From NCBI GenBank assembly GCA_025617745.1, contig CM046858.1, positions 30,332,534-30,396,533 on the forward strand: 64,000 bases of DNA. The letters run 5' to 3'. The stretch's first letter is position 1, and the number at the start of each line of letters is the position of its first letter. Positions 7,641 to 64,000 of the stretch are shown here, in pieces. The translations under genes and the position numbers were made by a program. The DNA comes from Heliocidaris erythrogramma. Taxonomy: Eukaryota > Echinodermata > Echinoidea > Camarodonta > Echinometridae. Under the pieces are notes generated by a model. The model was not told where the DNA came from. It saw only the letters and a list, made by a program, of their open reading frames with translations, and made no database searches.

Positions 7641-8150
7641 GAGATCGACGAACCCATCGCGCCTGTACTACTACGAGCGCTGAGGGCTCCCTTCATCATA
7701 ATCGTGAAAAATACAAACTGGATGCTGACGGACAGTCTCGATAGCAGTTATCGACAAAAAGGACCCCAAATTTCAGGAAACCCTCTTCAAAGGTCACAAA
7801 ACAACCTGGTAAGTTTTAATCATCTATTATTCAATATAATTCTTTGGATGTAAGTAAACTGCAATATATGATATTCAATTAAATATAGCCAAAAATGCAC
7901 AGTGATGCAGTTTAGGTATGGGATGTGTGTTGGCTGCGTTACTACACAGTCGGCAATGGCGTGTACCTATGAGTGCGTGCCACGGCACACTGCGTATTAA
8001 GCGAATGCATGGGAGCTTGTGTGTGGGTACCAGGTAGCTGTACGAGCTCCTTGGCTTATCAATCTGGTACTTGCCTATGGAGCTGTACATGGGATCCATA
8101 TACCTTGTGTGTTGGAAGGCATCACCCCAAAAAACTACATCTAAATATCA
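7641..8150. other. Gene-free stretch with a direct-repeat word
   Basis: No gene is supported. The phrase ccttggcttatcaatctggt at about 8050 recurs near 8653, so this flank and 8640-8700 are copies of the same repeat on either side of the hairpin element at 8151-8553. Confidence 0.45.
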
Positions 8151-8553
8151 CCATTTCTCACATAATTTGACCCATGCAACCCACCCTCGGAATTTGCTAT
8201 AGGGGTTACCTTCCAGGATCAACTAAGATTGTAAAAATTGAATGACTAAAAAAGGGGGAAAAAAGACTAAAATCGACAGATTTTTTTACCTTGCATTTGT
8301 AACGTATATATATATATGGGACACACAAACCTTTAAATACCTTGCATGGGTAGTCCCATATAACTTACATCATGTGCAAGTAAAAAAAAACCTGATCACA
8401 CCTGCCAGTTTTGTGTTGTTTTTTTTTTTGTCAATCAATTTTTACAACCTTAGTTGATCCTGGAGTTGAAGGTAACCCCTTTAGCAAACTCTGACTCTGA
8501 GGCCTGGCTGAGGATGGTTTGCATGACAGTGACTCACAGTATGTGAGAAATGG
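8151..8553. mobile_element. Hairpin MITE, ~400 bp
   Basis: The arms of about 90 bp are inverted copies. The left arm (8151-8241) runs from ccatttctcacata through aggggttacctt and gatcaactaag. The right arm (about 8434-8553) holds the complement in mirrored order. The right arm has ~20 bp not in the left (a ctgactctgaggcc segment). The loop holds a short AT microsatellite and no gene. Confidence 0.65.
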
Positions 8554-9262
8554 CAATATTTATTTTAGATCTATTTTTTTTTTTGGGGGGGGGGGGGGGT
8601 TGATATCTCATTATCTGCCTCCACACACGGTATGGATCCTACCTATATTATGAGCTCCTTGGCTTATCAATCTGGTACTAGTACTAGTAGTACTGGCCTA
8701 CGGAGCCATGGTATCCAACTGTGAGTGGAGTCGGAGGCACATATCAACAAAAACAAGATCTAACAATAACATGTAACAACTAACATGTCATGCATGTCTA
8801 AATGAATTATAATCATTTCTCACATACTTGCGAGCCATGCAAACCAGACATTTTATTCACAAGCCTCAAAATGTTGTTTTTCACGTCAAAAACTCCCGAA
8901 CTGCGTGTAAATGAATATTTGAATAAGTGCGCAGACATGGGATTGGGAACCATGCAAGATTGTTTATAATTATATTCAAATCAATGTTGAATTACTTGAA
9001 ATGTCATGACAAGACCACCGTTTCTTGTGAAAATGGCATTGTCCTTGCTCTAATTTTGATGCAATTTTTTTTCAAACTTACTCTTTAGAATATCAGGAAT
9101 AAAATAAAATAAATCTTTAGAGGAATAGTAAAGAAATTCTTGTTCATTTTTCCCGTCAAAACCTTAGGTGCGCAGACCTAGCGCTCCCCATACAGCTGCG
9201 GAGGCCAGTAGGCAGTACCACTGTCACTATACCAGATTGATCAGACAAGGAGCTCGGCGTAC
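8554..9262. other. Gene-free stretch
   Basis: The stretch holds a T-run then a G-run (about 8575-8600), the second copy of the ctccttggcttatcaatctg repeat with a small actagt iteration (8670-8690), and no supported gene. Confidence 0.45.
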
Positions 9263-9312
9263 AGTAAATAGTCCATGGGCCAGAAACCGAAAAGGTCCCC
9301 CCCCCTTAGGCA

Positions 9313-10860
9313 CAATTTTAAATGATGTTTTTCTGTTAGCTAGGACCCTCAGCTATCAGAATCTGCTTGTTTGCCATAAAGTTGGTGGTGGGTGTGGCCA
9401 CCAGGGCCGTTACCATGGTAACGGATCAAGAAAAATATGAATTTTAGGAAAAGTCATATAATTCCAATTCACGAATCTAAAAATACTTGGTAAGCATCAT
9501 AATATATGTATTTTAAGGTGCCCAATCGATTGCAACCATAATCAGAGCCATTTAAAGTCATGGGCGTGTCCAAAAATGGCCGTTACTATGGAAACGGTAC
9601 CATAAAAAGCCGGGTTTTTTTACAACTTTCCAAATTTATAAATATGAAATAGCCAAAAAGGTGTATGCACAAGCCTAAAGTATGTTTTTCTATTAGCTAG
9701 GACCCTCAGCTATCATAATCTGCCTATTTCATGTACAGTTGGTGGTGGGTGTGGCCTGTAGGACCGTTACTATGGTAACACACCAAAAATACTGGATTCT
9801 TAGAAAATACTGCATCTTTGTAATTCAATAGCTATAAAATATATGGTAAGTATCCCATTATGTGTATTTCAAGCTGGCTGATAGATTGCAATCACAATCT
9901 GAGCCATTTAAAGTCATGGGCGTGTCAAAAAAGGCCGTTGCTATGGAAACGGTCCAACAAAAAGCTGATATTTGTGAAAAAATCTATAACTAACCATTAC
10001 AAAATAGAAAGAAAAAAATGTCTGCACAGTCTTTGATAATTTTTTTATATTAGTTGTGACCCTCAGCTATCATAATTTGCTTGTTTGACATCAAAGTGGT
10101 GGTGGGCGTGGCCGCTAGGGCCGTTACCATGGTAACACATAGCGAAACACTGGAATTTAGAAAATACCGTATATTTGTCATTTAGCGGCATAAAATATAT
10201 GGTAAGGCCTCTAATATATGTATTTCAAGCTGTCCTACTGATTCCAACCACAATCTGAGTCATTTGAAGTCATGGGCGTGTCAAAAAGGGCCGTTGCTAT
10301 GGAAACGGTCCCACAAAATGCTGCTATTTGTGGAAAATATCTATGATTTATCAATACAAAAAAGGAAACAACTGTCTCCACAAACATAAATCATGTTTTT
10401 TCTGTTTGCTAGGACCTTCAGCCCTCATATTCTTCCTATTTTACATAAAGTTGGTAGTGGGCGTGTCCACTAGGGTTGTTACCATGGTAACACACCAAGG
10501 AATTGAATTTTAGAAAATACTATATATCTGTAATTCAACATCACAAAAACAAATTGTACCCATATAACTATATGTATTTTGGGGTGCCCGTTTGATTGCA
10601 AGTAGAATCAGAGTCATTGGAAGTCACCGTCATGTCAAAACATGGCTGTTGCTATGGAAACAATATGATAAAAATTGAATATTTCAACACAAAACAAAGA
10701 ACAAGTAGTATATACAGCTTAAAATGCTGTTTATCTGTCAGCTAGGACCCTCAGCTATCATAATCGAAAGCTTCCTAGTAGCCACAAAGTTGGTTATGGG
10801 TGAGACTGTCAAGGTAGCTACCATGGTAAGGCACCAAAAAACAGAGTTTTAGAATAATAG
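9313..10860 (+). repeat. Left array of ~356-bp units
   Basis: About four and a half tandem units, with starts spaced 357, 357, 355 and 333 bp. Each unit holds two palindromes, at 9409, 9582, 9766, 9937, 10123, 10293, 10478 and 10648. Their spacing alternates between 170-173 and 184-186 bp. The first palindrome follows a gggcgtggcc phrase and the second follows tcatgggcgtgtc. The fifth unit is decayed, and a SINE lies just beyond it. Confidence 0.85.
9407..9424. promoter_or_regulatory. Perfect X-box (RFX/EF-C type) palindrome
   Basis: The sequence CCGTTACCATGGTAACGG is a perfect 18-bp palindrome. Its core fits the RFX-family X-box form GTNRCC-N2-RGYAAC. It is the best of about eight in the left array. 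The match is seen in the sequence; binding by an RFX protein is inferred. Confidence 0.6.
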
Positions 10861-10884
10861 ATAATAATAGAAAATTGATTTTAC

Positions 10885-11085
10885 TTACCCAGGATAAGCA
10901 CATCAGTAATATTACTGCCCTGCAACTATCATTGCCTTGTACACATTTCATACATCTGGGTCAAGCAAAACAAATGTGGGCAAAACACCTTGCGCAGGGA
11001 TGTAAGCACCGATCAAGGATCGAATCCAAGAGCTCTCGTATGAGAGTGAAAGGTCTTCACCAATATACCACAGTGCTTCCACCAT
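10885..11085 (-). mobile_element. tRNA-derived SINE
   Basis: Read on the minus strand from about 11,083, it has a box A-like tggtatattggtga (11057-11070) and a box B-like ggattcgatcc (11018-11028), ~35 bp apart as in tRNA promoters. A ~130-bp body follows. It cannot fold as a working tRNA gene because the acceptor stem is not complementary. It sits at the inner end of the left X-box array. Confidence 0.65.
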
Positions 11086-11089
11086 GTAT

Positions 11090-13080
11090 TTGTAATGTAA
11101 CGAAGTACAATGTAGGCATCTAATTATACACAATTGAAGCTGCACCTTTAATTGCAATCAAAAGCCGGATGAATTTAGGTTAGTCATATAAAAATATGCC
11201 GTTGCTAGAGGAAAGGAATGATAAGAAAGCTAATATTGATTTTTAAGAAAGGGATATTTATGTATCTAAATAATGAATTATAAACAAGTGCAACTGTCCT
11301 ATTGGTTCAAATCCAGATTAACAATATTTTCCAGGTTGGAGGCCTCAAGTTCATGCCTGGGAGGACACTTGCTATGACAAACGAAGATGCAAATGTTCAA
11401 ATAGATATGCAAGGCTTCTGAAAATTCATTGTATTTTATAAGCCAATTCATATTAAAAAGGTACCACTGTACTTAGAGATACTCTCATCTACTGTGCTGT
11501 CGTATTACAGTATTAACTTTGACCACTTGGTAGGTGTTGTACTGTGGCTGTGAGCACCAAAAGCATCTTTAAAATATTGGCATTTCAGAAAGTGGCATTG
11601 TTTTAGTTGAACATTATTTTCTGACTGTACTGCTAACTGCAATTAATGTGTCGGTTTTGAGTTCACAGTCATTCTGTGAAATGATAACTGAGGTACATAA
11701 GTGTCCATACCCAGTTGACATGAGTGAGAGCTACTTTTATTCCACTTTGCCACTTCAAGGAGTTCTATAAATGGATGCCATTAGGAATCAGAAGTTAGAG
11801 AGCATCCTTGGGATAGAGGTACGGAACATTTTCAGCAGAATTCCTCTTGCAGCAACACCCGCTACTTTGGATGAGGTTGAGGATTACCCATCAGAGTTAT
11901 CATGAAGAACAGATACAATAAGGCATTGACAGACTTCAGAATTACATACCAAACTATACTAAGTAAATTTGAATTCCCTCTCGGGTGAAGTGAGGATTCA
12001 CTCATCATCTTCATCCTAACCATAGAGACAATACTCAAGTATTGCAAAAAATGTATTCTCTTCTAACATAGTGGTGGAGGTATAGATGACACCTATATCT
12101 CCATCCTGAGTTCTGACTTTATTCCGCCAAACCAAACCGGAGGAGGGTTGGACAATCTCCTCACCATGACCTTCTTAGCCTGTGATTCAAGCCAGATAAG
12201 AGTGCCTCACCATATCAGACTTGTAAGAAAGTCAACCAAGTTTTAATAAAAGAATGCTCAGTTCAAGTAAGGCTCCAGAACGCCTTAAAGCTGTAAAAGA
12301 TGGATAGACAAACCCGCTGGTGATCACTAATTTCAAAATATTATGGACTTAGCCACTAAACTCTGCCAAAAATATACCCCGCCAAAAATATACCCCATCC
12401 TTTATCCAACCATGCTTAAGGCAAGATAGTATTAGAGGAACAATCTCACAAACTATAGGCCATATCTCCTCTAAAGCCAAAAGAACTGCAGCTTAACTGT
12501 AAGGGCAACCAATATGTAAACTTATAGGTCTTATGGTCCCCAACACATCAAGTCCATGGCTAATATACGTGTACCCCAATCATGCAAGTCATGAGAACGC
12601 TGAGCTGCAAGTGCACCACAGGCCTTCTCAGTGACTCTTTTGAATACCTTCTAGCAAATATAAAAAACTCCAGGCAGGTATCAACACTGGACTTGATCTA
12701 TGATGAGGCACCCAAAAATTCAATTCTTTGGCCCTGTTTCTGATGAAGTCCAAATCCTAGACCACCTTGGCCATGCTGTTAATCCTTAATGAACATGCAG
12801 ATTTCCTATGGGTAGGATTAGGGGAAAGTATGCTAAATTCTATTCCAATCTTCTCAGATTTATTTCAAGTAGACAGGTTTATCATCTTATGAATACATAA
12901 GGTTCTGTGACTGAGGTGAATCCATTTATTAAGCCTCCATTGCCTCCCTCCCAACGCCAAGGCATAGAGGTGGAAGCATAACTACTCAAGTACAGCTAAC
13001 CAGTTAGGATCAGCTGTTGTTACTGCAATTAAAAAATGTCTTTGCAACATAATTGCCGCTGTGTAATAACAAAAATCTGT
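11090..13080. other. Middle section of element 1
   Basis: About 2 kb with no recognisable protein domain on either strand; the longest ORFs are about 60 codons. One degenerate X-box (gttgctagaggaaa, near 11200) suggests decayed array sequence at the left margin. A 19-bp tandem duplication (gccaaaaatataccccgcc type) is near 12367-12405. It could be the remains of a coding core. Confidence 0.5.
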
Positions 13081-13084
13081 CACC

Positions 13085-15228
13085 TTTTTAATAATAATAC
13101 TACCATGGCAACAACCATGTTTTGACATTACTATGACCTTAAGTGATTCGGATTATGACTGTAATTTAGTGTCATAACTCTGGAAGTTTATGATATGTAT
13201 ATCCAGACCAATATTTTGTGTTTTCTATTATTGAAACAGAATATATATATACATGTATATGTTATTTTCAAACAATTTCCAATATTTTGATGGTGCGTTG
13301 CCATAGTAATGGGGCTGGTGCTCACACCCACCATCGGCGTCAGTTTGAGACCAAACGGATAATAAGAATTATAATCGTGTACCTGACTGTGACCTTGAAA
13401 GCGCACAACAGAATTGCACTCAAAAGAGCTGCTTGAAATAGATGTAATGCCGACTAAATATTTTCACGTTGTTGAATTACACATATACGTTATTTCCTAT
13501 CTTATTACCATGGTAACAGCCCGAGTGGTCGCCCAGTATCCACCTTTGTGGCAGTCAGGGAGGATATGATATCCAGGGTCCTAGCTAACCTACAGGGGAA
13601 AAACCTCATTTCAGGTTGTGGATACCCTTACTTTATGCAGTGCATTGGATAGTTACATATTTTTTCACTAATATTTATTAATTCCCCATAACATTTCTAT
13701 AGCAACAACCATGTTTTGACATGACGGTGACTTCCAATGACTCAGATTTAGCTGATTTTAGGGTGTACATACACCTGTTCTTTGTTTTGTGTTGATTAGT
13801 TACAGAAATATTCAATTTTTATCATACTGTTTCTATAGCAACAGCCATGTTTTGACATGACGGTGCCTTCCAATGTCTCTGATTCTACTTGCAATCAAAC
13901 GGGCACCCCAAAATACATATAGTTAGATGGTTACAATTTGTTTTTGTGATGTTGAATTATAGATATATAGTATTTTCTAAAATTCAATTCCTTGGTGTGT
14001 TACCATGGTAACAACCCTAGTGGTCACGTCCACTACCAACTTTATGTAAAATAGGAAGAAAATGAGAGCTGAGGGTCCTACCTAACAGAAAAACATGATT
14101 TAAGATTGTGCAGACAGTTGTTTTCTTTTTTGTATTGATAAATCATTGATATTTTCCACAAATAACAGCATTTTGTGGGACCGTTTCCATAGCAACGGCC
14201 CTTTTTTGACACGCCCATGACTTCAAATGACTCAGATTGTGGTTGGAATCAGTGGGGCAGCTTATAATACATATATTAGAGTCCTTACCATGTATATTTC
14301 ATGCTGCTAAATTACAAATATACGTTATTTTCTCAATTCCAGTATTTCGTTATGTTACCATGGTAACGGCCCTAGCGGCCACGCCCATCATGAAATCTTT
14401 GGAAAACAGGCAGATTATGAGAGCTGAGGGTCCTAGCTTACAGAAAAACATGATTTAAGATTGTGCAGACATTTGTTTTCTATTTTGTATTGATAAATCA
14501 TAGATATTTTACACAAATATAAGCATTTTGTGGGACCGTTTCCATAGCAACGGCCCTTTTTTACACGCCCATGACTTCAAATGGCTCAGATTGTAGTTGG
14601 AGTCAGTGGGGCAGGTTGAAATACATATATTAGAGGCTTTACCATATATTTTATGCTGTTAAATGACAAATATACGACATTTTCTAATTTCCAGTATTTC
14701 GTTATGTGTTGCCATGGTAACGGCCCTAGAGACCACGCCCACCATGAACTCTATGGAAAACAGGCAGATTATGATAGCTGAGGGTCCTAGCTAACAGAAA
14801 AATATAATCTAAGATTGTGTAGACACCTCTCTGTCTATTTTATACTGATAAGTTTAGATATTTTTCAAAAATATAAACTTTTTATGTTACCGTTTCCATA
14901 GTACGGCCATTTTTTGACATGACCGTGACTTTAAATGACCTAGATTTTGGTTTCAATCAATCAGGAAACTCAAAATACATATATTTAGATGGTTACCGGT
15001 CATTTTTCAAATTTCTGAATTAGAAATATTAGGTATTTTAATAAATTCCTATATTTCCTTGATGCGTTGTCATGGTAACGGCCCTGGTGGCCACACCCAC
15101 CACTAACTCTTTGGCAAACAGGCAGATTCTGATAGCCTAGGGTCCTAGCTACCAGGAAAACATCACAAAAAATTGTGCCTAAGGGGGGGGGAGGGGGGTC
15201 TACGTTGGCCCATAGACTAAAAGTACGC
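13085..15228 (-). repeat. Right array of ~356-bp units (inverted)
   Basis: The mirror image of the left array. Palindromes lie at 13504, 13829, 13999, 14183, 14354, 14538, 14708, 14892 (one base short) and 15066. From 13829 on, spacing alternates 170/184/171/184/170/184/174. The units from 13990 outward are the best preserved. The inner ones (13085-13830) are degenerate. Orientation and spacing match the left array read backwards. Confidence 0.85.
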
Positions 15229-15237
15229 AGTACAATC

Positions 15238-15895
15238 ATGTATGGTGGTGTGACCATATTTCGCGCATGACCTAAGTTCGCGCACAGGGCAATATCTAAA
15301 AAACTACAAAAGATTTCGAAAATCTGATAGCGCTATTAGATAGAGGAAGCTAAAATTACATATGGACTATATTTTCTTTTACGTTGGGTGAGAAATTATG
15401 AAGATATTGACAAAATATCGGCAATTTTGCTACTTTTTGCGTCAGTTTCCGAAAAATATGAAGTTACCGACAACGGTCCAAAAATCCTCATTTTGATAGA
15501 AGATGTCATCAAAGTTGTAGGTAAAACGTGATACCAAATGATTGTATGATATTTTGTCTTACAAATGATGCAATTATCTTCCCTTTACTGGACCGCTACG
15601 TTGGATAACTTAGATGTTAATTTTCGTGCGCGAACTTAGGTCTCGTGGTTTTTATGCCCTTTTTTTTTCTTCAGTGTTTTGCGATCCGACACTGGGTTTT
15701 GAGTTCGCGATATTTCCGAAATTCTTCGTCGATTAATGTTCTTGTTGAATCAAGTTTTAGTCCAGAATTTTGCTTTCCGTTTGGTATAAAACTTTATAAA
15801 TAAATTATTGTAGAATATGAGAAATCAAGTATCGAATATCACATTTCTAATAAAAATTTGAATGTGCGCGAAATATGGTCACCCCATCATACATG
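15238..15895. mobile_element. TIR element with nested inverted motifs, ~660 bp
   Basis: The ends are ~30-bp inverted repeats: catgtatggtggtgtgacc at 15238 and ggtcaccccatcatacatg ending at 15895, each followed inward by catatttcgcgca or its complement. A second inner pair, acctaagttcgcgcac (15270-15285) and gtgcgcgaacttaggt (15626-15641), is also inverted. No ORF of note is present. It abuts the right end of element 1 and probably inserted there. Confidence 0.75.
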
Positions 15896-15949
15896 TAGGT
15901 CACCCCATTATACCCGGGATACCACTCCAGTCGATAGAGTCAATAAAAT

Positions 15950-15985
15950 CTTACAAATCTTACAAATCTTACAAATCTTACAGTG
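15950..15985 (+). repeat. Nine-base tandem repeat
   Basis: The unit cttacaaat is repeated about four times in a row, immediately after the TIR element. It is a simple microsatellite with no evident function. Confidence 0.8.
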
Positions 15986-15989
15986 AGTT

Positions 15990-16793
15990 GTGGATATCAC
16001 ACTGTGCCCCTGTCCCGGCGCTGGCATTATGTTTGGTCAATCTGACTAGACTGCCGCTGCTTGTCTGAAGGAGAAAAAAATCTCAAGTCTCAAGATGATA
16101 AAACAAACGTCGAGAACTAGCTTTCAGTTGGTATACATACTAGCTGCACTGAGCTAGCCGAGTTAGTTAGCTAGCTACATGCGATATGCGTATATACGCT
16201 GGCGCTGGCATGGCTCGCCGACGGGTACGGTACGACCGTATACCGTTGCACTGTACAAGTAACTATCCCGACAGCTCAGCTAGCTAAAAGCTGATATATC
16301 ACTGGCGCCTAGCGCCTGTAAGTTGATGTTGGGTATAAACTGGCTTACCAGAGATACATACTATGTACCAGAGATACATACTATGTATCTCTAACATGTA
16401 GGAAACACACATAGCGTATTGCCAATGTCTCACAACGAACGCATGAGGACGCTAGACCAAATACTGTTTGAAACGTAGATCTGCCGTTATTTCAGCCAGA
16501 ATTTTGATTTCAAAACCATATTTTATTTTCTTTTTTAAAAATAGTGAATGAGCTCCAATTTCTATCTTACTTTCACATGTCACTAATTATAGTTCTAACA
16601 GTAGGATTATATATCATTGGACCACTTTCACGCTGAATTTGTCAAATTTTGCAAAGCTACACAATACCTTTAACACGAATCAACAACGTTTTAATGATCA
16701 GAATATGAAAGTGTCTGAGCCTTTACAAGACTCTCATCTTTGCTGATACGAGCCAGAACCCATGACATAATGTACCTCGCGTAAGACAGTGTG
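15990..16793. other. Gene-free stretch
   Basis: No gene is seen. A 20-bp tandem duplication (accagagatacatactatgt) lies at about 16357-16396, and there are several agctagcta words near 16140-16180. Confidence 0.5.
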
Positions 16794-22570: not shown

Positions 22571-23040
22571 ACTATTTGAGCACGGACGGACGGATGGTTT
22601 TTTTGTTGTTTTCTTTGTTTCCTTCCATCATATTTTCTTCCATCCTTCCTACCCTTCTATTCTCTCTTTATAGTTCATGTTTTTCTTTGCATTATCCTTC
22701 TATTGTTTTCTTTATTCCCTTGCTTGTCGTTTTTAGCCTGAAAACGGGAAAAATCATACTGAGATGGACTCTTTTTCAATTTGTCCCCTTGAAGACACCT
22801 TCCTGAAAAATGTTCGAAAATTTCTACAAACGCGACGCGACGTTACCCGACTGTTTAGCAAAAGCCGCTAGGAGGGGGCTGACGCCTTTTGCCCGAATAG
22901 CAACATTCAATTTGTAAAGATTTGCGAGCGAGCGAAGTGAGCGAGCAAATTTTTATGACTTCTCGAAGTGAAAATGTACAGAAGTTACATACAGTTACAC
23001 AATATACAGTTACACATACAGAAGTTACACAAATTTAATC

Positions 23041-23190
23041 CAAGAAGAGGGTCGCTATTCTTAATCCAAGAAGAGGGTCGCTATTCATAATCCAAGAAGA
23101 GGGTCGCTATTCATAATTAGAGAAGATGGTCGCTATTCATAATCGGAGAAGAGGGTCGCTATTCATAATCAAAAAAGAGGGTCGCTATTT
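23041..23190 (+). repeat. 26-bp minisatellite, 3' block (about 6 units)
   Basis: The unit is agaagagggtcgctattcat plus aatc and two variable bases. Six units of 26 bp follow each other with only substitutions. The last runs into tatttatttattta, the tail of the LINE to the right. The same repeat in the same orientation returns at 29172-29535. Confidence 0.85.
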
Positions 23191-27104: not shown

Positions 27105-28139
27105 TAGCCTCTTGTCGAGGCCCTGGCGCTGTTGAAATCCTTGGCGATATGGAGGCAAAATTTCTGGCGAGCGAAATGAGCCAGAAAGACCGAGGCGCTT
27201 GCGCCGAGGGCCTCTTGACACCTGATCTGAATTTCTTTTGTATTTCATTGTTTTGACGAATATTCCGACCAAAGTTTGGTCGGTGAAAATCATCCAATAA
27301 GCGCGAGCTACCATGACGTAATGTTAAATATTCATGACTGGACTGCACGCTAGCTTACATATTAATTAATCGCAGCCCAAAATGGCGTTCAACGTTTCTT
27401 CCACGACGAGTGATGAGGATATTTGTAGGAGCTTAGAATATGCCGCTAGAATGTTGAAGATTGACAGATTCAAAGATTTGCAAGTTGATGCAATCAAATC
27501 TGCACTTAAAGGACAAGATGTTTTTGTGACTCTGCCTACTGGCTATGGAAAAAGTGTTATTTTTCACGCGCTACCGCTCTGTGCTGATTACCTCCATGGG
27601 CCAGGGATGGAGAGTGAGACTGCTGCTAGCGAGCAAGGGCCAGACGGATCCCCCGGGGCCTTGCCGGGCAGTGAAGTTGCTGGTAACTCCTTGGTTACAT
27701 CAGAATTGATGGAGATGCATCTATTGTTGAACGGTGACTTTTATTACCCATTCTTCATTATTTGTAAATATATGATGAGTTCTGAGAAATATGTACATTT
27801 ATCTTATTTCAAATTACCATGGTTTGTAAGCTAGAGATCGAATTCTTCATAATGTGCTTGTCTGTGAATGTATTTTGAGCAAGAGATTTACGTAATGCCC
27901 CCCAAAAATAATAGACTAGTCCAGAACTGAAGTAAGAAATCCTTGAGATTTCATTGGCCAATTTGCTTGGCGATCGTCGTGGTTATCTAACTATTCACGT
28001 TTTACATGCATAATTCAGTAGAAAATCGTGCCTCATGAATATATAATTCAGGTCGGGTGTCAAGAGGCCCTCGGCGCAAGCGCCTCGGCCTCCATATCGC
28101 CAAGGATTTCAACAGCGCCAGGGCCTCGACAAGAGGCTA
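27105..28139. mobile_element. Mutator-like element carrying a helicase exon, with 9-bp TSD
   Basis: A perfect 9-bp direct repeat, ctagccccc, borders it (27096-27104 and 28140-28148). The ends tagcctcttgtcgaggccct and its complement start ~105-bp inverted repeats. The left one has an extra ~34 bp (near 27157-27190). The 1,035-bp unit contains a putative promoter region and the first coding exon of a RecQ-like helicase. A 9-bp duplication with long TIRs fits the Mutator superfamily, so this is a Pack-MULE-like gene-capture structure or a remnant of an autonomous element. Confidence 0.8.
27382..27834 (+). CDS. RecQ-type helicase amino-terminal exon (partial)
   Basis: The ORF starts at an ATG in a strong context (aaaATGg). 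It reads through DLQVDAIKSALKGQDVFVTL and the Walker A segment LPTGYGKSVIFHALPLC, diagnostic of RecQ-family superfamily 2 helicases. Similarity stops near residue 70. A possible splice donor (ctggtaac) is near 27680; the downstream codons look non-coding. The Walker B box, motifs III-VI and RQC/HRDC domains are absent from the window. The upstream 140 bp holds a tgacgtaa CRE-like word. As it stands it cannot encode an active helicase. Confidence 0.6.
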   Translation: MAFNVSSTTSDEDICRSLEYAARMLKIDRFKDLQVDAIKSALKGQDVFVTLPTGYGKSVIFHALPLCADYLHGPGMESETAASEQGPDGSPGALPGSEVAGNSLVTSELMEMHLLLNGDFYYPFFIICKYMMSSEKYVHLSYFKLPWFVS

Positions 28140-29171: not shown

Positions 29172-29535
29172 GAGAAGAGGGTCGCTATTCATAATCGGAG
29201 AAGAGGGTTGCTATTCATAATCGGAGAAGAAGGTCACTATTCATAATCGGCGAAGAGGGTCGCTATTCATAATCAAAGAAGAAGGTCGCTATTCATAATC
29301 GGAGAAGAGGGTCACTATTCATAATCAGAGAAGAGGGTTGCTATTCATAATCAAAGAAGAGGGTCGCTATTCATAATCGAAGAAGAGGGTCGCTATTCAT
29401 AATCAAAGAAGAAGGTCGCTATTCATAATCGGAGAAGAGGGTTGTTATTCATAATCGAAGAAGAGGGTCGCTATTCATAATCGGAGAAGAGGGTCGCTAT
29501 TCATAATCGGAGAAAAGGGTCGCTATTCATAATCA
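29172..29535 (+). repeat. 26-bp minisatellite, 5' block (14 units)
   Basis: Fourteen consecutive units of exactly 26 bp (364 bp), type gagaagagggtcgctattca plus taatcg, with point differences but no length change. The orientation matches the block at 23041-23190. There are no unique spacers, so this is a minisatellite and not a CRISPR array. Confidence 0.95.
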
Positions 29536-30045
29536 GAGCAGAGCTATTCTGCGCACTCAAGCGTAGAATATTGATAGATGTTTTGGTGTCATTTGATAGA
29601 AGAGATCCTCAGCTGTCCACAGGTATGAAAATATCCTTAAAATATTGTGAAACATTTATATGGGGAGACTTTTTCGAACTGTAAACTTTTTTGCTGGGAC
29701 GCACTGTACATAGTTCCAAAGGTTAAATCATATTTGTACATTGTGAAGAAAATTATTACATGTAACATAAAAACTCTTAGATGCACATTGATTTCAAAAA
29801 CTGCAATGCACGTAAACAAAAAGATTTAAAATTAAAATAGACTAGCCATCTTACCCGTATCGCGATTTTTGAAATGGAGCGTTTAGTGCATAAACGTGTT
29901 TAAGATGTGGGATTTTTAGGCAGGAAAAACAGGATATAGTACAATTTTTTGGACTTTTTGTTGCTATGATGTACAGCACTGTGTACAGCACTGTTGATTT
30001 CCTATGCGCGCGGAGAAGTTTATAATCGATTATGTTCATGATCGA
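29536..30045. other. Gene-free stretch
   Basis: It includes the ~65-bp repeat shared with 19085-19150 (29577-29640). No gene is seen; the overlapping 60-codon ORFs on the two strands are chance. Confidence 0.5.
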
Positions 30046-36547: not shown

Positions 36548-36830
36548 TAACCTCGCTATTCACAAGGACCGCTATTCATAAAGACCACTTATTCATAAGG
36601 ACCGCTATCCATAATGCGTGACTAAATGAATAGCGGTTTTGTATGAAAAGCGGTCCTTCTAAATAGCGAGCAAACCATAGACAAATTACCTTACTATTCA
36701 TAAGGACCTCCATTCATAACGACCACTATTCATAACTATTCATAAGGACTGCTATTCATAACGCGTGTTAAATGAATATAGCGGTTTTCTATGAATAGCT
36801 GTCCTTTTGAATAGCGAGCGGACCCGGAAG
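36548..36830. repeat. Two tandem hairpins built on gaccgctattcataa
   Basis: Each ~140-bp unit starts ctattcataaggaccgctat-type and ends with the complement (aatgaatagcggt, gtccttttgaatagcgag). The first hairpin ends near 36670 and the second near 36830. The core cgctattcataa is also the heart of the 26-bp minisatellite at 23.0 and 29.2 kb. Confidence 0.7.
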
Positions 36831-39339: not shown

Positions 39340-39745
39340 AACCTTCCTCATAGCACGACTGCAAAGTGTTGCCGCCCTCTACGTTCGTTGGTCTTGACCA
39401 GCAGAATCTTGAGCGGGCGACATTTTCAAGAGCTCCGTAGCTGCGTTATTTATCCATAGACATTTTGGCGGGAAAATTAAAACCCAGCGGCAACGGTGCC
39501 AACAAGTAACCGCCACCAGCCCTTCGACCTACACCCATCTTTGGCTTCTATCCAGTCTACTTCTTATAGCTTCTGGCGAAATCCGACTTCGTTCCAGTCG
39601 CCTAGTTAGTGGAGGCTGAGGCTGGGGTTACCCACAGGCGTTCCCATGGTGATATTGTCACTCATTTTCATACTTTTCTCCACGTATTAATAACATTACA
39701 ATAACAGGTAAGAGGTTGATTAATTCATTAACATGCGCATGAGAT
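39340..39745 (+). promoter_or_regulatory. Probable 5' UTR and internal promoter of the I-group LINE
   Basis: This ~400-bp block is GC-richer than its left flank and lies immediately before ORF1. LINEs of this group carry internal promoters here. No TATA or Inr element is clear, so this is inferred from position. Confidence 0.35.
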
Positions 39746-54686: not shown

Positions 54687-54766
54687 TATTAAGGAGATTG
54701 ACTGGATAGGACAATCCTCGATGAAAGGACTACTAGTACACGGCTCCTCGTCACAATTTTAAGGGA

Positions 54767-55800
54767 TACTTAAAATTTTCTGTAGAATCTGATTTTTTGT
54801 GCTATATCCCCTATTTTGGGGGTGCTGAACATGAATTTACTTGTTGCCATTTTTCTAAATGACGTCTTCGGCCGTAACGAAATATTTTCTAAAAAATAAC
54901 ATATATCTCTTAACAAACAACATAAAAATATAATGTTAGTGATGAAGTGTATCAATTTCAGGCTACCCGTTCAATTAAAATCAAAATCACAGTTGTCAAA
55001 GGTCATGTTATGCTCAAAAAGGGCCGTTGCTATGGTAACGCCTAATTTTTTTCAGAAAATAGCATATTTCTGCAATAAAAACATAAAAACATAATGGAAG
55101 TGTTTAAATATATCTATTTCATGCCAAAACTTTGATTTCCATCAAAATATTGGTCTTGCAAAGTCATATATGTGCCACAACATGGTCGTTGCTATGGCAA
55201 CAATATGGCTGAAATTGGTATTTTAAGAAAAAAAATATAGCATTTCTGTATCAAAACAAAACATACAACATAATAAGAAATGCCTAAGTACACATACTGT
55301 CCACTTTCTGATTCTTTTCATTCTAGGTGTAGATTTTGAAGTAATAGTCATGCCTGATAGGACAGTTGCTATGGCAACAAATGATGCAAAAGTTAAAGTA
55401 GGTATGCGTAGCTTATGAAATTCATTTCAGTGCATTTGTTAACATACCTAAAATCTACCTCCTCCCCTTGGACATATTTTTTTCCTCACTCTGTTCTTTC
55501 TTATTACCTAGTTGTCTTGGCCATCAATATCATTATCTGCCTCTTTGCCATAAAAAAAGGGATGGTGGATAAACGTGCCAGAGACGTTACCACGGTAACA
55601 AATTAATTTCACGAAGTAAAATGTCTCTGAGTAAACCACGTAAAGGCATAAAGTTAATATCTAAGAACATCTCTTCCAGCTACTAGTTAGGCCGCAATTA
55701 ACATCTGAATTATCCCAGTTCATAGTTATGCTAAAAAATGGCCGTTGCTATGGTAACGTCTGAATATTCAGAAAAGCATGTATTTGTAATGGAACAATCA
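54767..55800 (+). repeat. Left array of element 2
   Basis: Palindromes lie at 55026 (gttgctatggtaac), 55188 (gttgctatggcaac), 55365 (gttgctatggcaac), 55586 (gttaccacggtaac) and 55744 (gttgctatggtaac), with a half-site near 54872. The spacing is about 155, 162, 177, 221 and 158 bp. Each unit also has tcaaa-tcat phrases and an aaaacata-taat word. The array is cut at about 55800 by a LINE fragment. Confidence 0.8.
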
Positions 55801-55802
55801 AT

Positions 55803-57330
55803 CAAGTCAGGCAGAATTTCCGAGATCCATGGATAAGTTCTTTCCAGCAACCTTTGTCATTCATAAGTTCAGCGATGCCTCGCGTCTCCTGGAGACCAGT
55901 GTCCATCGTTAATGAATCGACATGTCCTCCTATGTCTCCCTCTTCTTGCTTCTCCATGAAGGGCCACTCAGTGTAGTGTGAGTTCTGGTTGCCTTTGATC
56001 ATGCCCTGAAGGCTTCAATCTCCTCTGGGTTACTTTGGAGCTGACGTTTGGAAGGTTTCCCTACAGCTCCGAGTTCCTCAATCTTGTTGCGAATTGGTTG
56101 ACGTTCAGAGCCATCCTTTAACATTCTAGTGTAGCGCCCATCAACCATCTGAGTAAGTCTCTTTGTAAGGGTCCAGGTCCCTGACCAATACAACAAAACA
56201 TACTCCACCGTAGCTGTGAAGAGACTTATCTTTAGGACTTTACGGAGGTCTGATTCCCACACCGACTTCAAGCTGTAGCATGCTGCCCAGGCGTTCTTCA
56301 CCCTATCCACAACGTCATCCTCTGTGTTCCTGATCTTTGCTCCCAAGTACAGGAAGTCATCCACCAATTCAATTGGCTTCCCACCAGCACTCACGATTCC
56401 CTCTGGCTCCAAGACGTTCTCCAGCAGATAGTCTTGCTCTCATTTATCCGCAGTCCTACATTCATAGCTACCCCTCCACCTCTCCCAGTAAATCCTCTGC
56501 CTCCTTTACTGTGATTGCCAACAGAACTATGTAGTCAGCAAACTGAGCATCTGATATCTTCTTAGCCTTAACTCTCCTGCTCCAAGGTGGAGTTACGGTG
56601 AAGCCAGAGTCATGGTGTTTCTCCAGTGCCAGGGTCAATTACGATCAAAAAAAGATATGGAGCTAATGTATCACCCTGGAGTACTCCAGTCTGTAACTCG
56701 AACTCTGTCAGCCCATCGGGTGTGATAACCTGGGCTTTGGTGTTTGTGTACAGCAGGGATATCAGGTCCATCTTCTTGGGGGTTCCATAAGCCCATACAA
56801 TGTTCATCAGGCAGTTTCGGTCTACTGAATCAAAGGCTTTTCTAAAGTCATTGAACACCATGACAGCAGGGAGGCCCTTTGCTCTGGCACCCTCAAGAAT
56901 GCTCCTGACTAGTGGCGGATCTTCCCTCTCTAAAGCCATTCAGGCTGTCTCTGAGCTGCTTCTCAATCTCTTGCTGGATTCGGTTCAGAATCATCCTGTT
57001 GAGGGTCTTTGCAGCAATGCAAGTAACGTTAGTGAGATGCCCCTGTAGTTGTTGGTGTTAGTAAGGTCACCTTTCTTTGGTACTGGGACAGTGTTACTTA
57101 TCCTCCATTGATCTGGGAAAACACTCTTCTCAAGTGCCTGATTACAGAACTCCAGGCTGATATCACTAAAATCCACATCTCTTCATCACCTCCCGCGACA
57201 CTCCATCATATCCATACCCCTTACCCTCCTTGACCCCCCCCCCCCCCCCCCCCGCTGGCTCTCTTAAGCTCTTCACTGGTAAAGGGCCTGTCTCGATATC
57301 CATTTCTTTGAATAGCTGCCTGATCACCCT
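55803..57330 (-). pseudogene. RTE-like LINE reverse transcriptase, fragmented
   Basis: On the minus strand: VFPDQWRISNTVPVPKKGDL (57176-), the first catalytic block FNDFRKAFDSVDRNCLMNIV and GVLQGDTLAPYLFLIVID (56939-56610), then VDDFLYLGAKIRNTEDDV, ESDLRKVLKISLFTATVEYV and GTWTLTKRL (56412-55999), and the tail MDTGLQETRGIAELM (to about 55810). The catalytic YADD region falls in a broken part near 56500-56600. A C19 run (about 57235-57253) interrupts the 5' part. At least four frame breaks exist. Confidence 0.8.
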
Positions 57331-57341
57331 GGTGTTCTGAT

Positions 57342-57690
57342 ATAATAATAATAATACATGACATTTATATAGCGCTAATTGCCAAAGCCTCTAAGCGCTT
57401 ATAGAGTGATAGTAAGAGAGAGATACCAGAACAATTACACATACTGAGAAACTACAAAGAGCAAAATATAACAAGATACATGTACACATTATGAATAAAC
57501 AGATTTGAACAGATGGGTTTTTAACATTGTTCTAAAAATGTTCACATTGTCGGCTTTACGAATTTGGTGCGGTAAGTTGTTCCAGAGTGATGAGGCAGCA
57601 AATGAGAAAGATCTTTGACCGTAGGCTTTAGAAGAAATCTTTGGAATTTGAAGGAGAAATATGTGGGAGAGGTTTGTCCTAGTAAGGTCT
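57342..57690 (-). mobile_element. 5'-truncated L2-like LINE 3' end
   Basis: On the minus strand the end of an ORF2 is readable (GQRSFSFAASSLWNNLPHQI, then KTHLFKSVYS and stop). A ~170-bp 3' UTR follows with gcgcttagaggctttggcaa and tagcgctatataaatg, and a (tta)n tail at 57342-57356. It interrupts the RTE-like LINE: the piece at 57700-57853 belongs to that older element. Confidence 0.8.
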
Positions 57691-57699
57691 TAAAATGGT

Positions 57700-57853
57700 T
57701 CAGCAACTTCCCCTTCCTACTCAAGGCCTGTTCTTTGATCTGACTCGAACTCCCTCTCTTCTTCCCCGTGATCTCGTTGATGATCGTCAAACTCCCTATG
57801 CTTTTACAACTGTCTGCTGCTCTCTCAACTCTCCAGATCTTCTCAATCAGCAA
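57700..57853 (-). pseudogene. RTE-like LINE linker fragment
   Basis: It reads SIGSLTIINEITGKKRGSSS and SRKGKLLNHFKTLLGQTS, the segment between endonuclease and RT in this LINE type. It is the continuation of 57330-55803 across the inserted L2-like tail. Confidence 0.65.
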
Positions 57854-57859
57854 AGACTC

Positions 57860-59800
57860 CTCCCTAGCTTTAGTGCAGTTGGCACGAGGTCTTCCTTCCT
57901 CTCCTCAACACACTTCTTCTTCTCTCCGAAGGATCAGCACAGAACTCGTCCATAGCAGCTCTTAGGTGTTCTCTGGCTGCACACACTCTGGGATCTTCAG
58001 AGTAGTCATCTGCCATCTTCCTCTTCCTCTTCAGCACCAAGTCCTCTCCAGCTTCTGTTACTGCAGTGGTGAAGTGAAGAAACTATAGTTGATAAAGTAG
58101 GCATTCCCCATTCGTTTTGTACACAGAACTCAGAAATTCTCCATTTTCGGGCTGACATGAGGTCACAAAAGGTCATGTAACTTGGTAACGGTATGACCGA
58201 TTTTTTAAAACATGATGTCACAAGATGTAGAAGACTTGAAAGAAAAACTCAGAAAATGGCGTGGCGTGAAATGCAGTGGTTCGAAACGCGTGGCGATATT
58301 TGTCTCAGAGCCCCCCCCCCCCCCCCCCAGTACAAAGGGTTAATTACCCAGGTATCAGCTGTTATGATATAACTGTTTGGTATTAAACAGATGATGGGTG
58401 TTGAATATTGGAATTTAAAAAAAACATACACTTTCTGGCTGACATCATGAAAATGGAAAATCAAATGTGCTTTTCTGCAAGATTCCCAGTCGATAAAGGC
58501 CGTGGTTATGCCAGACAAGGGTCATTGCTATAATAAACCTGTGATATACAAAGAGAATGTGTAACAAGATTATTTTTGAATAATTGACAACATTTGGTAG
58601 TGGATTTGTAGCTGAATCTGGACTGTTGCCGAACAACGTTCAGCTGCAAAAAAGGGGGGAGTTAAAAGTATGCGTGCTAGGTCTACAAAATTAATGGGTA
58701 TAAGCGTAATATTGGTTGCTTCAAAATTTTATCCTCCCGCCCTCCTATGTAACATCTTAATGCATGTTGTAGGATATGAACTTGTAGATCTTGCCCATCA
58801 ATAGAGGCTTTTCAGTTCCTGCAGATTATTGAAATGGCCTAGAGGATGATTATTGCATGTTCCAGCTAGCAAGGTCTTATCTGCAACTAATAGGTGCCCT
58901 TTCAAGGTCACAACTGAGTCCTACAAAGTGTTAAACCTTAGTATCAATGAACACAGGAGGAAAACTGCTAGAGGAACTGGTAGATCTAGTCTCCTTCTGG
59001 GCCTGACTTGATCTAGATCTAGTTTATATGCATTTACCTAGGTCAGAGCAGAATTGGAGACCTCATAGGGTGGCTCCAGACCTCCAGGTTCATGTAAGCA
59101 TCTGAGAATGCAATCTTCGAAGATCAGAGTAACAACCGCTGCATGCAGGGCTGTGTGACATCTACTCAGACATTAGAGGCAGAGTTGTCTGCTATTTTCA
59201 AGGGAGGTTGAAGCTGGAGTTTCAGAAAAAGGATTTGTTGGCATTATTTGCGTTTGCCCAGATATTTTCAAAACTGGCATCGGAAACTGGTTTCATTTTA
59301 CCATTCTTTTTTGTTGTTGTTTTTAACCACGATCTACGTACATGTATTTAATGTTTTCAAATTGCTATAAATATTGTAAATATTGAAATGTATTGCCTCT
59401 TGTTATTAGTAAGTAATAATACAATCATATCACATCAATCACATCAAAAGAGCCTCCTTTGAAGCCCACACTATCTACATGTAGGCAGGCTGTTCAATTC
59501 ATGGATATTTTCATAACAAACCGGCAGATGATAGCTACAAAAGGCTAATAGGCTTATAGAAGAAGATAAAGGAAAAAAGGTGTCTAATACGACAGGGCAG
59601 TATTGCAGTAGATGTACTCCGTTTGTTTTCAGTGTATTTGTTTACTATCACCATTGAGTTTGATGTCCTTTTGAGGGAGGATTGCGTTTATTCGTTGGAG
59701 TATGACCTTCGCCCCTTTTGGCCAGTATCTTGTTAGTATGATCAAATAAACGGTTGGTAGACATGATTGTGGCTGGTAGTCGTTCAATGATGTCATGGTT
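57860..59800. other. Central part of element 2, no gene
   Basis: No protein domain is recognised. Degenerate X-box words (ggtcattgctataataaacc near 58518, aacttggtaacgg near 58180) suggest decayed array units. A C-run lies at about 58311-58328. The 58680-59640 part is unique-looking. Confidence 0.5.
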
Positions 59801-61611
59801 GCAGCGGCGGGATAATAATGTCATATCAGGACGTTGCCGTAGCAACAGCCATGTTTTGCCATAAAGCTGCCTATGAATAACTAACAATTTAATGAATATC
59901 AAAGAGGTACGTTGAACTACATTTGATATATTCTTGAACACTTGTATTATGCTTTTATGTATGTTATATTTAGATATACATGTATGTGAAGGCTATACAT
60001 TTTTCTTTCAAAATTTCAAAATTTAACTGATCGATTACCAAGGCAATGTATCTGGAATGTTTGGATTTATCACTCACCACCAGTTTAACAGCAATCAGGG
60101 AAGATTATGACAAAGAGTCTGTTGGTAGATCCCATTAGAGAAAACTGTGTCACGGGTGGGAGTACACTTTCTACATATTAGCCCATGCATTTTTTATTAT
60201 TGATTCATAAGTCGAGCATACTTTCTTTTATTTTTTTTCACATCAATGTGTTGTCATAGCAACTATTCTATCAGACATGACTGTTACCTAAAAAATATAT
60301 CAAAAATACATCTTTATTGAAAATAATTGGAGAGTTGGAAATTTGTAACATTTTTACTACTTTCTTAGACAATGTTTTTTGTGTTAGTGTTAAGATAGAG
60401 AAATACCATATTTTTCCTCAAAATATCAGTCTAAACCTGGTCGTTGCCATAGTAACGACCATATTATGGTATAAATACATTGTTGTAAGACTTTGCATGA
60501 CCAAGGTTTTGATGGCAATCAAATTTGGAGCATGAAACGGACAAACGAACACACTTGTTATGTTAATACGTTGTTGCATCATAAATATATTGGCATTTTC
60601 TAGAAATTCAGATATTACCATGGCAACGGCCAATTTGGAGCATAACCATGACCTTTGATAAGCCAGATGTTAACTGCAAGGTAATGTGCAGCTTGAGAGA
60701 TTCTGAGACATTAACGACATGTATTTATGTTGTATGTATTTATATTTATGAAAAATATGTTATTATCTGAGAAGTAATTTGTTACCATGGCAATGTCTTT
60801 AGCACTTTCATCCACCACCAAATTGATGGCAAATAGGCACATAATGATGACTGATTCATCTGGGTAACCAACAATAACAGAATGGATGAAACTGTGCCTA
60901 AGAGGATGGGGTACGTTTTGGGTATATTAGCCTATACACTTTTGTTATTGATTTCATAAGCCATTCATACCTAACTTTAACTTTTGCATCATTTTGTTGC
61001 CATAGCAACTGTCAAATCAGGCATGACTGTTACCTGAAAATCTTCATCTAGACCTAAAAGAATTTGAAAGTGGAAAGTATGTGTACTTAGACATTTTTAT
61101 TATGTTTTCTTTTTTGTTCTGATACAAAAAAGCTATATTTTTTCTTAAAATACCAATTTCTTCCATGTCGTTGCCATAGCAACGACCATGTTGTGGCATA
61201 AATATGACTTTGCACGACCAAGACTTCGATGGAAATCAAAGTTTTGGCATGAAATAGATATATTTATACACTTCTATTATGTTTATGATTTTTCATTACA
61301 GAACTATGCTATTTTCTGAACAATTTTAGGCGTTACCATAGCCACGGCCCTTTTGAGCGTAACCATGCCCTTTGACAACTGAGATTTTGATTTTAATCAA
61401 ACGGGTAGCTTGAAATTGATACACTTCATCACTAACATTATATTTTCATGTTGTTTGTTAAGAGATATGTTATTTTTTAGAAAATATTTCGTTACCATGG
61501 CAACGGCCGAAGACGTCATTTAGAAAAATGGCAACAAGTAAATTCATATTCAGCACCCCCAAAATAGGGGATATATCACAAAAAATCAGATTCTACAGAA
61601 AATTTTAAGTA
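59801..61611 (-). repeat. Right array of element 2 (inverted)
   Basis: Palindromes lie at 59833, 60250, 60443, 60613, 60781, 60996, 61170, 61332 and 61491. Read inward from the end, spacing is 159, 162, 174, 215, 168, 170 and 193 bp, the mirror of the left array over the first five units. The outermost unit ends in aacggccgaagacgtcattt, shared with 54855-54875 on the left. Confidence 0.85.
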
Positions 61612-61620
61612 ACCTTTTAA

Positions 61621-63540: not shown

Positions 63541-63641
63541 AAAGTTTTCTTCAATGCCACAAAAGAAATGTGCACTGAAGCAAAGGACTCTCTAATCCCC
63601 AAGTCACAAAGACAAACTGCAGCCTTGTACACCATATGCAT

Positions 63642-64000
63642 GTCAATGAATGAAACAAAAGAATTTCAAAAGGGATTTGCACCCCTCGAGCAAGAGGATA
63701 TTGATGTTCTGCCATGGTTCGCCCGTTCACCAGACCTTTCCCCAATTGAACATCTCTGGGAAGAGCTTGGTCGACGTGTGTCAAGGCGTGACAATCAACC
63801 CATCAATAGGGAGACGCTCATTGCAGCACTGCAAGAGGAATGGAACAATGTTCCCCAGGCTACCATCGCGAATCTGATCGGAAGCATGCGAAGACGGTGT
63901 ACAGCTTGCCAGCAAGCTAGAGGTGGACATACTGGCTATTAATCTGTTTGGATATGAACTTGCAAATCCCTTTTGAAATTCTTTTGTTTCATTCATTGAC
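63642..64000 (+). mobile_element. Tc1-like element, internally deleted
   Basis: The ends are perfect 40-bp inverted repeats (63642-63681 and 63961-64000), starting gtcaatgaatgaaacaaaag. The right repeat ends exactly at the window edge, so the repeat may continue outside. Between them is only the 3' end of a transposase gene. It would be mobilised by a full-length Tc1-like relative. Confidence 0.85.
63683..63942 (+). pseudogene. Tc1-like transposase, carboxyl fragment
   Basis: It reads DVLPWFARSPDLSPIEHLWE, containing the last catalytic acidic residue (E of PIEHLW) of the DD34E/D triad, then LGRRVSRRDNQPINRETLIA and a carboxyl helix with SMRRRCTAC, ending at a stop before the right repeat. 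The DNA-binding domain and the first two catalytic aspartates are deleted. The ORF's first codons (63568-63680) belong to the flank and the left inverted repeat. Confidence 0.85.

What the first reader, a model, noticed from the sequence alone, without database searches (positions are those of the whole stretch)
9263..15228. Mirrored arrays of X-box palindromes form a 6-kb inverted-repeat element
The sequence shows two inverted tandem arrays of a ~356-bp unit. Each unit has two GTTNCCATGGNAAC-type palindromes, one of them perfect over 18 bp (9407-9424). RFX-family proteins are known to bind X-boxes of the form GTNRCC-N(0-3)-RGYAAC. A mobile unit whose ends consist of dense RFX-like sites is not something I know as a described class. 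Inference: the sites could recruit a host RFX factor or an element-encoded protein, or nucleate foldback structures.
Basis: partly seen in the sequence, partly recalled or inferred. Interest (0 to 1): 0.88.

Follow-up and report, generated by a model that had tools for sequence, protein, structure and literature searches.

The report
Sea-urchin foldback elements bearing RFX-like sites
Two old hairpin-shaped mobile-DNA relics in a sea-urchin genome carry mirrored rows of a DNA word that looks like the docking site of a cilia and sperm gene switch, and that word changed far less than the DNA around it.

Summary
9269-15219 holds two inverted tandem arrays of a ~356-bp unit (arms 84.5% identical over 1449 columns), each unit with one strong and one weaker X-box-like palindrome, alternately about 170 and 185 bp apart. 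It is not a one-off: a second, diverged foldback of the same unit family lies at 54763-61614 (arms 80.8%; a profile trained only on element-1 units finds nine stretches there, best E 6.7e-14). All 17 strict GTNRCC-N2-RGYAAC matches in 64 kb lie in the four arms; 0.1 were expected. The two palindromes are the best-conserved 14-mers of the unit. Element 2 has TTAA-containing flanks and GG ends, the published Kolobok signature; element 1 has no convincing duplication. Pfam finds no transposase in either interior. The closest named protein relatives are sea urchins. Best reading: a non-autonomous foldback family, perhaps Kolobok-moved, whose inverted repeats are arrays of dyads for a dimeric protein, most like RFX sites. 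RFX binding is untested. Copy number could not be checked: the genome-search machine did not complete (eleven tries).

The parts
9269..15219 (.). Element 1: foldback element, two inverted arrays around an interior without recognisable domains
   Evidence: arm alignment 84.5%; outer limit = end of shared TAGTCYATGGGCCA in both arms, by eye
9296..10725 (+). Element 1 left arm: four ~356-bp units
13755..15192 (-). Element 1 right arm: four ~355-bp units in reverse orientation
9407..9424 (.). Perfect 18-bp palindrome CCGTTACCATGGTAACGG (strong site); equivalents at 9766, 10123, 10478, 13999, 14354, 14708, 15066 (start of the 14-mer; not all perfect)
9582..9595 (+). Weak site of the first unit (GTTACTATGGAAAC); equivalents at 9937, 10293, 10648, 13829, 14183, 14538, and near 14892 (one base deleted)
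10707..11430 (+). Decayed inner units of the left arm
   Evidence: profile hits 10707-10854, 11106-11237, 11292-11422
13098..13752 (-). Decayed inner units of the right arm
   Evidence: profile hits 13166-13098, 13335-13251, 13627-13461, 13751-13643
11431..13097 (.). Element 1 interior, no Pfam domain in six frames
   Evidence: stretch 10860-13090
54763..61614 (.). Element 2: second foldback of the same unit family
   Evidence: inverted arms 54754-55797 / 61624-60571, 80.8% over 1075 columns; nine stretches found by a profile trained on element-1 weak units only
54757..54762 (+). TTTTAA next to the left end of element 2 (candidate target-site duplication)
61615..61620 (+). TTTTAA next to the right end of element 2 (candidate target-site duplication)
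54763..55810 (+). Element 2 left arm, palindromes at 55026, 55188, 55365, 55586, 55744; the outermost one lacks 9 bp of its core
59824..61614 (-). Element 2 right arm, palindromes at 59833, 60250, 60443, 60614, 60781, 60996, 61170, 61332, 61491; a ~750-bp block is duplicated (60175-60793 / 60924-61503, 67%)
55811..59823 (.). Element 2 interior: reverse-transcriptase fragment (minus strand), one possible decayed unit at 58490-58536 (E 0.002), no transposase found by Pfam

Best explanation
These are two old copies of one family of non-autonomous foldback DNA transposons in a sea-urchin genome. Element 2 has the insertion signature of the Kolobok superfamily (TTAA-type duplication, 5'-RR ends). 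The long inverted repeats grew by tandem amplification of a unit holding two protein-binding dyads, and the arms were later copied or converted into each other. Shown: the arrays, their mirror symmetry, the second copy, the concentration of RFX-consensus sites, and their slower change. Inferred: the dyads bind a dimeric protein, most likely a host RFX factor, since the sites match the RFX consensus with a constant spacing of 2. RFX proteins act in ciliated cells and, in mouse, in spermatids, so arrays of X-boxes would keep the element ends open or transcribed in the male germ line, where transposition is inherited. Movement itself would need a transposase from elsewhere.
For: Arrays and symmetry. 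Second element with the same unit: direct BLAST matches between the elements (best 79% over 80 columns, E 1.6e-11) and nine profile hits. All 17 strict RFX consensus matches with spacing 2 lie in the arms (7163 of 64000 bp), 0.1 expected over 20 Markov sequences. With the looser Drosophila X-box GYTRYY-N1-3-RRHRAC (PMC2375033 passages), at spacing 2: 27 of 30 window matches lie in the arms, 2.3 expected, and 26 of the 33 arm sites fit. Palindromes tie for rank 1 of 343 windows. 8 of 224 cells differ from the majority in palindromes, 383 of 2264 elsewhere; the true position is the single best of 356 circular shifts. 6 of 7 substitutions fall at positions 4, 6, 9, 11 (see evidence against). TTTTAA on both sides with GGGATACTT / GGTTACTT ends; Kolobok = TTAA and RR..YY (PMC9587614). 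Tandem repeats of Galileo carry extra binding sites (PMC3573991). Host. RFX2 in spermiogenesis: PMC4498915.
Against: No binding or expression data. Element 1 has no convincing duplication: its longest flank match is 5 bp, which 69 of 300 random boundary boxes reach. For element 2 a 6-bp or longer match arises in 26 of 300 boxes, so only the TTAA identity (joint chance 0.0014) carries weight. No Pfam transposase in either interior. Only two copies seen, both in one window. The eight units share ancestry and conversion, so they are not independent. The set of tolerant positions (4, 6, 9, 11) was chosen after seeing the site counts: P is 0.003 with it, 0.03 if the free spacer positions 7-8 are added, and 0.12 if 3 and 12 are added too. 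The spacer AT is kept in 31 of 33 sites, although the RFX consensus leaves it free. The element-1 weak sites break the strict consensus at position 11, and 7 of 33 arm sites fit neither consensus. Sites for base counts were chosen by likeness to the motif. The 75 bp upstream of sites are barely more alike between elements than shuffled DNA (0.533 against 0.483), so the family link rests on BLAST and profile hits.
Confidence: 0.47

Rival explanations
1. The dyads are binding sites for the element's own (absent) transposase or accessory protein, repeated to raise its affinity for the ends, as proposed for Galileo. The likeness to RFX sites is then convergence.
For: Secondary binding sites in tandem repeats of long inverted repeats are stated for Galileo, there as work then submitted (PMC3573991; also cited in the Tetris paper). 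Strong conservation of the sites. The constant CCATGG centre is not required by the RFX consensus.
Against: The match to the RFX consensus at one fixed spacing is specific. Most sites lie hundreds of bases from the ends, and the outermost palindrome of element 2's left arm is broken.
Confidence: 0.28
2. An ordinary foldback or satellite-like repeat in which the palindromes have no function; their conservation is chance or a recombination by-product.
For: Foldback elements with tandem repeats are a known kind; unit copies are partly homogenised between arms. Only two copies are in hand.
Against: Homogenisation acts on tracts, but two separate 14-bp spots 170 bp apart are spared far more than their flanks (8 of 224 against 383 of 2264 cells; best of 356 shifts), and the motif type is kept in element 2.
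Confidence: 0.17
3. Local inverted duplications of a satellite-like array, not mobile elements.
For: Element 1 lacks a convincing duplication; any inverted duplication has sharp outer ends.
Against: Two separate foldbacks about 40 kb apart share the unit and the mirror layout, and the element-1 query found no similarity between their interiors apart from decayed units; element 2 has TTAA flanks and RR ends.
Confidence: 0.08

Closest known systems
Foldback elements with tandem repeats in the inverted repeats (Tetris, Galileo)
   Same: Long inverted repeats containing tandem units (Tetris ~220 bp, Galileo F ~210 bp; passages), copies without intact genes, arms of unequal length
   Different: Unit is ~356 bp with two RFX-like dyads; the passages read mention no such content
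TU elements of Strongylocentrotus purpuratus
   Same: Sea urchin, long inverted repeats with internal tandem repeats (the Tetris paper cites a sea-urchin foldback; details recalled)
   Different: Recalled TU outer domain is a ~15-bp repeat with 8-bp duplications; here the unit is 356 bp and element 2 has a TTAA-type duplication. No TU sequence was at hand to compare
Kolobok superfamily, including Xenopus T2-MITEs such as Xmix/Xstir
   Same: TTAA duplication and 5'-RR ends in element 2; T2-MITE Xmix also carries an amplified internal segment, Xstir
   Different: No transposase here; arrays are mirrored in both arms and carry X-box dyads; element 1 shows no TTAA duplication
RFX X-box (and RFX-bound AAV terminal repeats)
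   Same: GTTRCC-AT-GGYAAC dyads; RFX1/RFX3 bind the AAV terminal-repeat D sequence (PMC5760533 abstract)
   Different: X-boxes in the passages read are promoter elements upstream of or near gene starts; here 33 sites of this type, 17 of them strict, stand in regular arrays

Membership tests
Foldback transposon | long terminal inverted repeats containing tandem sub-repeats around a unique middle | tested here: met
Foldback transposon | target-site duplication at the ends | tested here: inconclusive
   element 2 TTTTAA on both sides; element 1 none above chance
Foldback transposon | dispersed in multiple copies | tested here: inconclusive
   two diverged copies in 64 kb; genome search unanswered
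Kolobok superfamily | 4-bp TTAA duplication | tested here: inconclusive
   element 2: present, with 4-6 bp phase ambiguity; element 1: absent
Kolobok superfamily | 5'-RR / YY-3' termini | tested here: inconclusive
   element 2: met in the 4-6 bp phasings listed; element 1 ends undefined
Kolobok superfamily | encodes, or is moved by, a Kolobok transposase | tested here: inconclusive
   no Pfam transposase in either interior, so non-autonomous at best; the mover is unknown
piggyBac | CCY-type termini at TTAA (recalled) | tested here: not met
   element 2 ends GG
TU elements | ~15-bp repeat outer domain and 8-bp duplication (recalled) | tested here: not met
   array periods 354-357 bp; longest flank matches 6 and 5 bp in a scan of up to 12
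RFX X-box | GTNRCC-N0-3-RGYAAC | tested here: met
   17 sites in arms at spacing 2, 0.1 expected; of 33 arm sites 17 fit this, 26 fit the looser Drosophila form, 7 fit neither
RFX X-box | bound by an RFX protein | not testable with these tools
   needs binding assay or ChIP

The most novel reading that the evidence does not exclude
A transposon family whose inverted repeats are built as regular arrays of RFX dimer sites, in element 1's left arm one every 169-186 bp (close to a nucleosome repeat), so that a host cilia/sperm transcription factor opens or holds together the element's ends in the germ line. The element would spread on RFX activity and seed ready-made X-box clusters through sea-urchin genomes.
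Probability: 0.28. Interest if true: 0.78.

Novelty: new variant of a known kind. Interest (0 to 1): 0.5.

Why it matters
Foldback transposons with tandem repeats are known, but what the repeats are for is mostly open. Here the repeated unit has two sharply conserved dyads of a recognisable transcription-factor type. That turns the question (docking sites for transposase or for host factors?) into a simple binding test, in animals where RFX presumably drives cilia and sperm flagella (inferred from other animals). It would also name a source of dispersed X-boxes.

Tried and rejected
Genome-wide copy number, ends and autonomous partner: the genome search on the window's own assembly was sent eleven times in the same form and never answered. 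A scan of viral contigs with the extended palindrome gave one record; its 9505 bases hold one site within one mismatch, taken as chance.

Hairpin or cruciform selection was rejected as the main cause: dyad positions 4/11 and 6/9 are complementary in 15 of 33 sites each, no more than shuffled (218 and 575 of 1000 shuffles as good). The flanking pair just outside the 14-mer does show an excess (20 of 33; 20 of 1000 shuffles as good), which could mean an extended site, methyl-C decay or some pairing constraint.

Strong and weak half-units as duplicates of one ~178-bp ancestor: not supported outside the palindrome and a short GGGCGTG stretch (mean local scores 14.8 against 13.0 and 18.9 against 15.8 for shuffles, 0.8 and 1.1 standard deviations). 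The strong-unit profile does reach weak sites of element 1 (E about 1e-6 to 5e-4), but those stretches include the palindrome.

Element 2 inserted into the LINE reading frame at 53454-54758: the ORF shows no methionine before its 2A motif while relatives P0122 and P0125 begin upstream, but reading the two flanks by eye gave stops, so this stays open. An alignment of element-1 ends with element-2 spacers mis-oriented two rows and was not used. Rfam gave one match far below its threshold in 8000-16500, and ARAGORN found no tRNA gene.

Literature: searches for the dyad words and RFX with mobile elements and for foldbacks, sea urchin or Kolobok. By titles and starts of abstracts no listed paper describes X-box arrays in a transposon. 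Lists were partial: 6 of 6, 5 of 5, 15 of 82, 12 of 46; 20 of 51, 20 of 37, 20 of 55, 5 of 5, 10 of 18. Of eight papers opened I saw the abstract and outline (PMC2872659, PMC5760533), passages (PMC6004289, PMC4079207, PMC2375033, PMC3573991, PMC4498915), and passages plus the Background (PMC9587614). This is not proof of absence.

On re-checking I lowered the best explanation from 0.50 to 0.47, the novel case from 0.30 to 0.28 and the interest from 0.52 to 0.50, and raised the transposase rival from 0.25 to 0.28, because the tolerant-position test weakens under a wider set of positions.
Full report
What is there. The window most likely comes from a sea urchin. A LINE reading frame at 53454-54758 (minus) is 82% identical to Lytechinus variegatus LOC121411977 over 64% of its length and 71% identical to a Diadema antillarum protein over 52%; the only other named hit of 27, a snail, is at 32%. 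A gag-like frame at 39743-41119 is 65% identical to a Lytechinus pictus protein over 76%; its other named hits are also sea urchins. This decides the group, not the species.

Element 1. Two arrays with periods of 357 and 354 bp face each other at 9296-10725 and 13755-15192, 84.5% identical over 1449 columns. Further decayed units continue inward to about 11430 and from about 13098. The sequence between has no Pfam domain in six frames. The arms stop matching near 9269 and 15219, just outside a shared TAGTCYATGGGCCA. No flanking duplication stands out: the longest match is 5 bp, reached by 69 of 300 random boundary boxes. In the left arm each unit is closer to its mirror partner (0.77, 0.78, 0.84, 0.92 from outside in) than to any other left-arm unit (0.66-0.74); in the right arm R14354 and R14708 are closest to each other (0.86), and L10123 is as close to R14708 (0.85) as to R14354 (0.84). 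So the arrays were copied or converted between arms after tandem growth, with some exchange out of register. Arm identity is 0.74-0.88 in the outer 900 bp of element 1, 0.92-0.97 further in and 0.80 in the last bin; in element 2 it falls inward from 0.91 to 0.63-0.75.

Element 2. At 54763-61614 a second foldback has arms of 80.8% identity over 1075 columns, with palindromes of the same type at steps of 158-221 bp and one gap of 417. Direct BLAST links it to element 1 (best 79% over 80 columns, E 1.6e-11). A profile built from the eight weak half-units of element 1 alone finds nine stretches in element 2, best E 6.7e-14, weakest 0.0043, the longest 184 bp, so the unit, not just the palindrome, is shared. 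The strong-unit profile had two element-2 sequences in its training set and is not used for this claim. The interior holds a reverse-transcriptase fragment (RVT_1, E 4.8e-8, minus strand), presumably a nested insertion; one further Pfam match was far below its cut-off. Both ends are flanked by TTTTAA, and the ends read GGGATACTT and GGTTACTT; 4-, 5- and 6-bp phasings are possible. A 6-bp or longer match turns up in 26 of 300 random boundary boxes, so length alone proves little. TTAA in 8-bp flanks on both sides has a chance of 0.0014. TTAA with 5'-RR termini is the published Kolobok signature (PMC9587614 Background read; PMC6004289 passages). I call this a signature, not membership.

The palindromes. 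36 sites in 64 kb lie within two mismatches of GTTNCCATGGNAAC against 3.6 expected; 33 of the 36 are in the four arms. For the strict RFX consensus GTNRCC-N2-RGYAAC the window holds 17, all in the arms (11% of the window), 0.1 expected; with spacings 0, 1 and 3 it holds 1, 0 and 0, the one outside the arms. The looser Drosophila form at spacing 2 has 30 matches, 27 in the arms, 2.3 expected; 26 of the 33 arm sites fit it and 7 fit neither form. In the aligned eight units the strong and the weak palindrome tie as the most conserved of 343 14-base windows (column identity 0.934, unit mean 0.724). Cells differing from the majority number 8 of 224 in palindromes and 383 of 2264 elsewhere (the outermost 45 columns left out of the latter). 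Of 356 circular shifts keeping the 170-bp spacing, only the true one does as well. Seven substitutions and one deletion occur in the sixteen sites. Six of the seven are at positions 4, 6, 9 and 11, where the RFX consensus is degenerate (P 0.003). I chose that set after seeing the counts; adding the free spacer positions gives P 0.03, and adding positions 3 and 12 as well 0.12. Across the 33 sites position 4 is always A or G and position 6 always C or T; position 11 is C or T in 26 and A in 7, all in element 1; the spacer is AT in 31. These sites were picked by likeness to a motif with positions 4 and 11 left free. The paired positions do not covary, so recognition by a protein fits better than cruciform formation.

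How it most likely works. Shown: two related foldbacks, arrays, preserved dyads. Inferred: a non-autonomous transposon, perhaps moved by a Kolobok transposase supplied from elsewhere, whose inverted repeats carry many copies of a dimer site. The site type points to host RFX. RFX proteins direct ciliary genes (PMC2375033 passages), mouse RFX2 directs spermiogenesis with a 14-bp inverted-repeat motif (PMC4498915 passages), and RFX1/RFX3 bind the terminal repeat of a parvovirus (PMC5760533 abstract). Arrays of such sites would keep the ends accessible or transcribed in sperm precursors and help bring the two ends together. The main rival is that the sites serve the element's own transposase, as tandem repeats in Galileo are said to do (PMC3573991 passages). 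The constant CCATGG-like centre, which RFX does not demand, is a point for it.

What is known and what is new. Foldbacks with tandem repeats in their inverted repeats are established (Tetris and Galileo), including one in sea urchin cited by the Tetris paper. A Kolobok-type MITE with an amplified internal segment exists in Xenopus. In the listings I saw no transposon whose repeats are arrays of X-boxes. From memory, not from a call: the RFX1-DNA crystal used a symmetric site very like the perfect palindrome here, and RFX1 is also known as a methylated-DNA-binding protein.

Limits. Copy number, defined ends in other copies, an autonomous partner and binding are all untested. The genome search did not complete (eleven calls listed in Tried and rejected). 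The eight units are related, so the conservation statistics describe this element, not independent evolution.

Noticed in passing
53454-54758 (minus): LINE reading frame with a 2A-like motif (GDIEANPGP; the name is recalled) near its N-terminus, ending against element 2; named relatives in Lytechinus and Diadema.
   Followed up: partly
27105-28139: About 1-kb unit with ~72% inverted ends around an ORF (27370-27834) matching the N-terminal part of RecQ helicases (Q1, BLM).
   Followed up: partly
15237-15895: Likely MITE: 31-bp inverted ends at 93.5%, about 20 bp from the right end of element 1.
   Followed up: no
8043-8069, 8652-8701, 9208-9255: Three copies (one inverted) of a GAGCTCCTTGGCTTATCAATCTGG repeat just left of element 1.
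   Followed up: no
54874-54876 against 61491-61504: In the left arm of element 2 a 9-bp core of the outermost palindrome is missing, with the flanks intact.
   Followed up: no
23036-23189, 29172-29543, 36554-36762: Dispersed 26-bp (and 16-bp) tandem repeats containing CGCTATTCATAA-type words.
   Followed up: no
10880-11090: Possible tRNA-derived SINE inside the left arm of element 1 (B-box-like word on the minus strand, judged by eye); ARAGORN and Rfam do not report it.
   Followed up: partly
63541-63939: Tc1/mariner-like transposase C-terminus (PDLSPIEHLW motif, recognised from memory; no Pfam hit).
   Followed up: no
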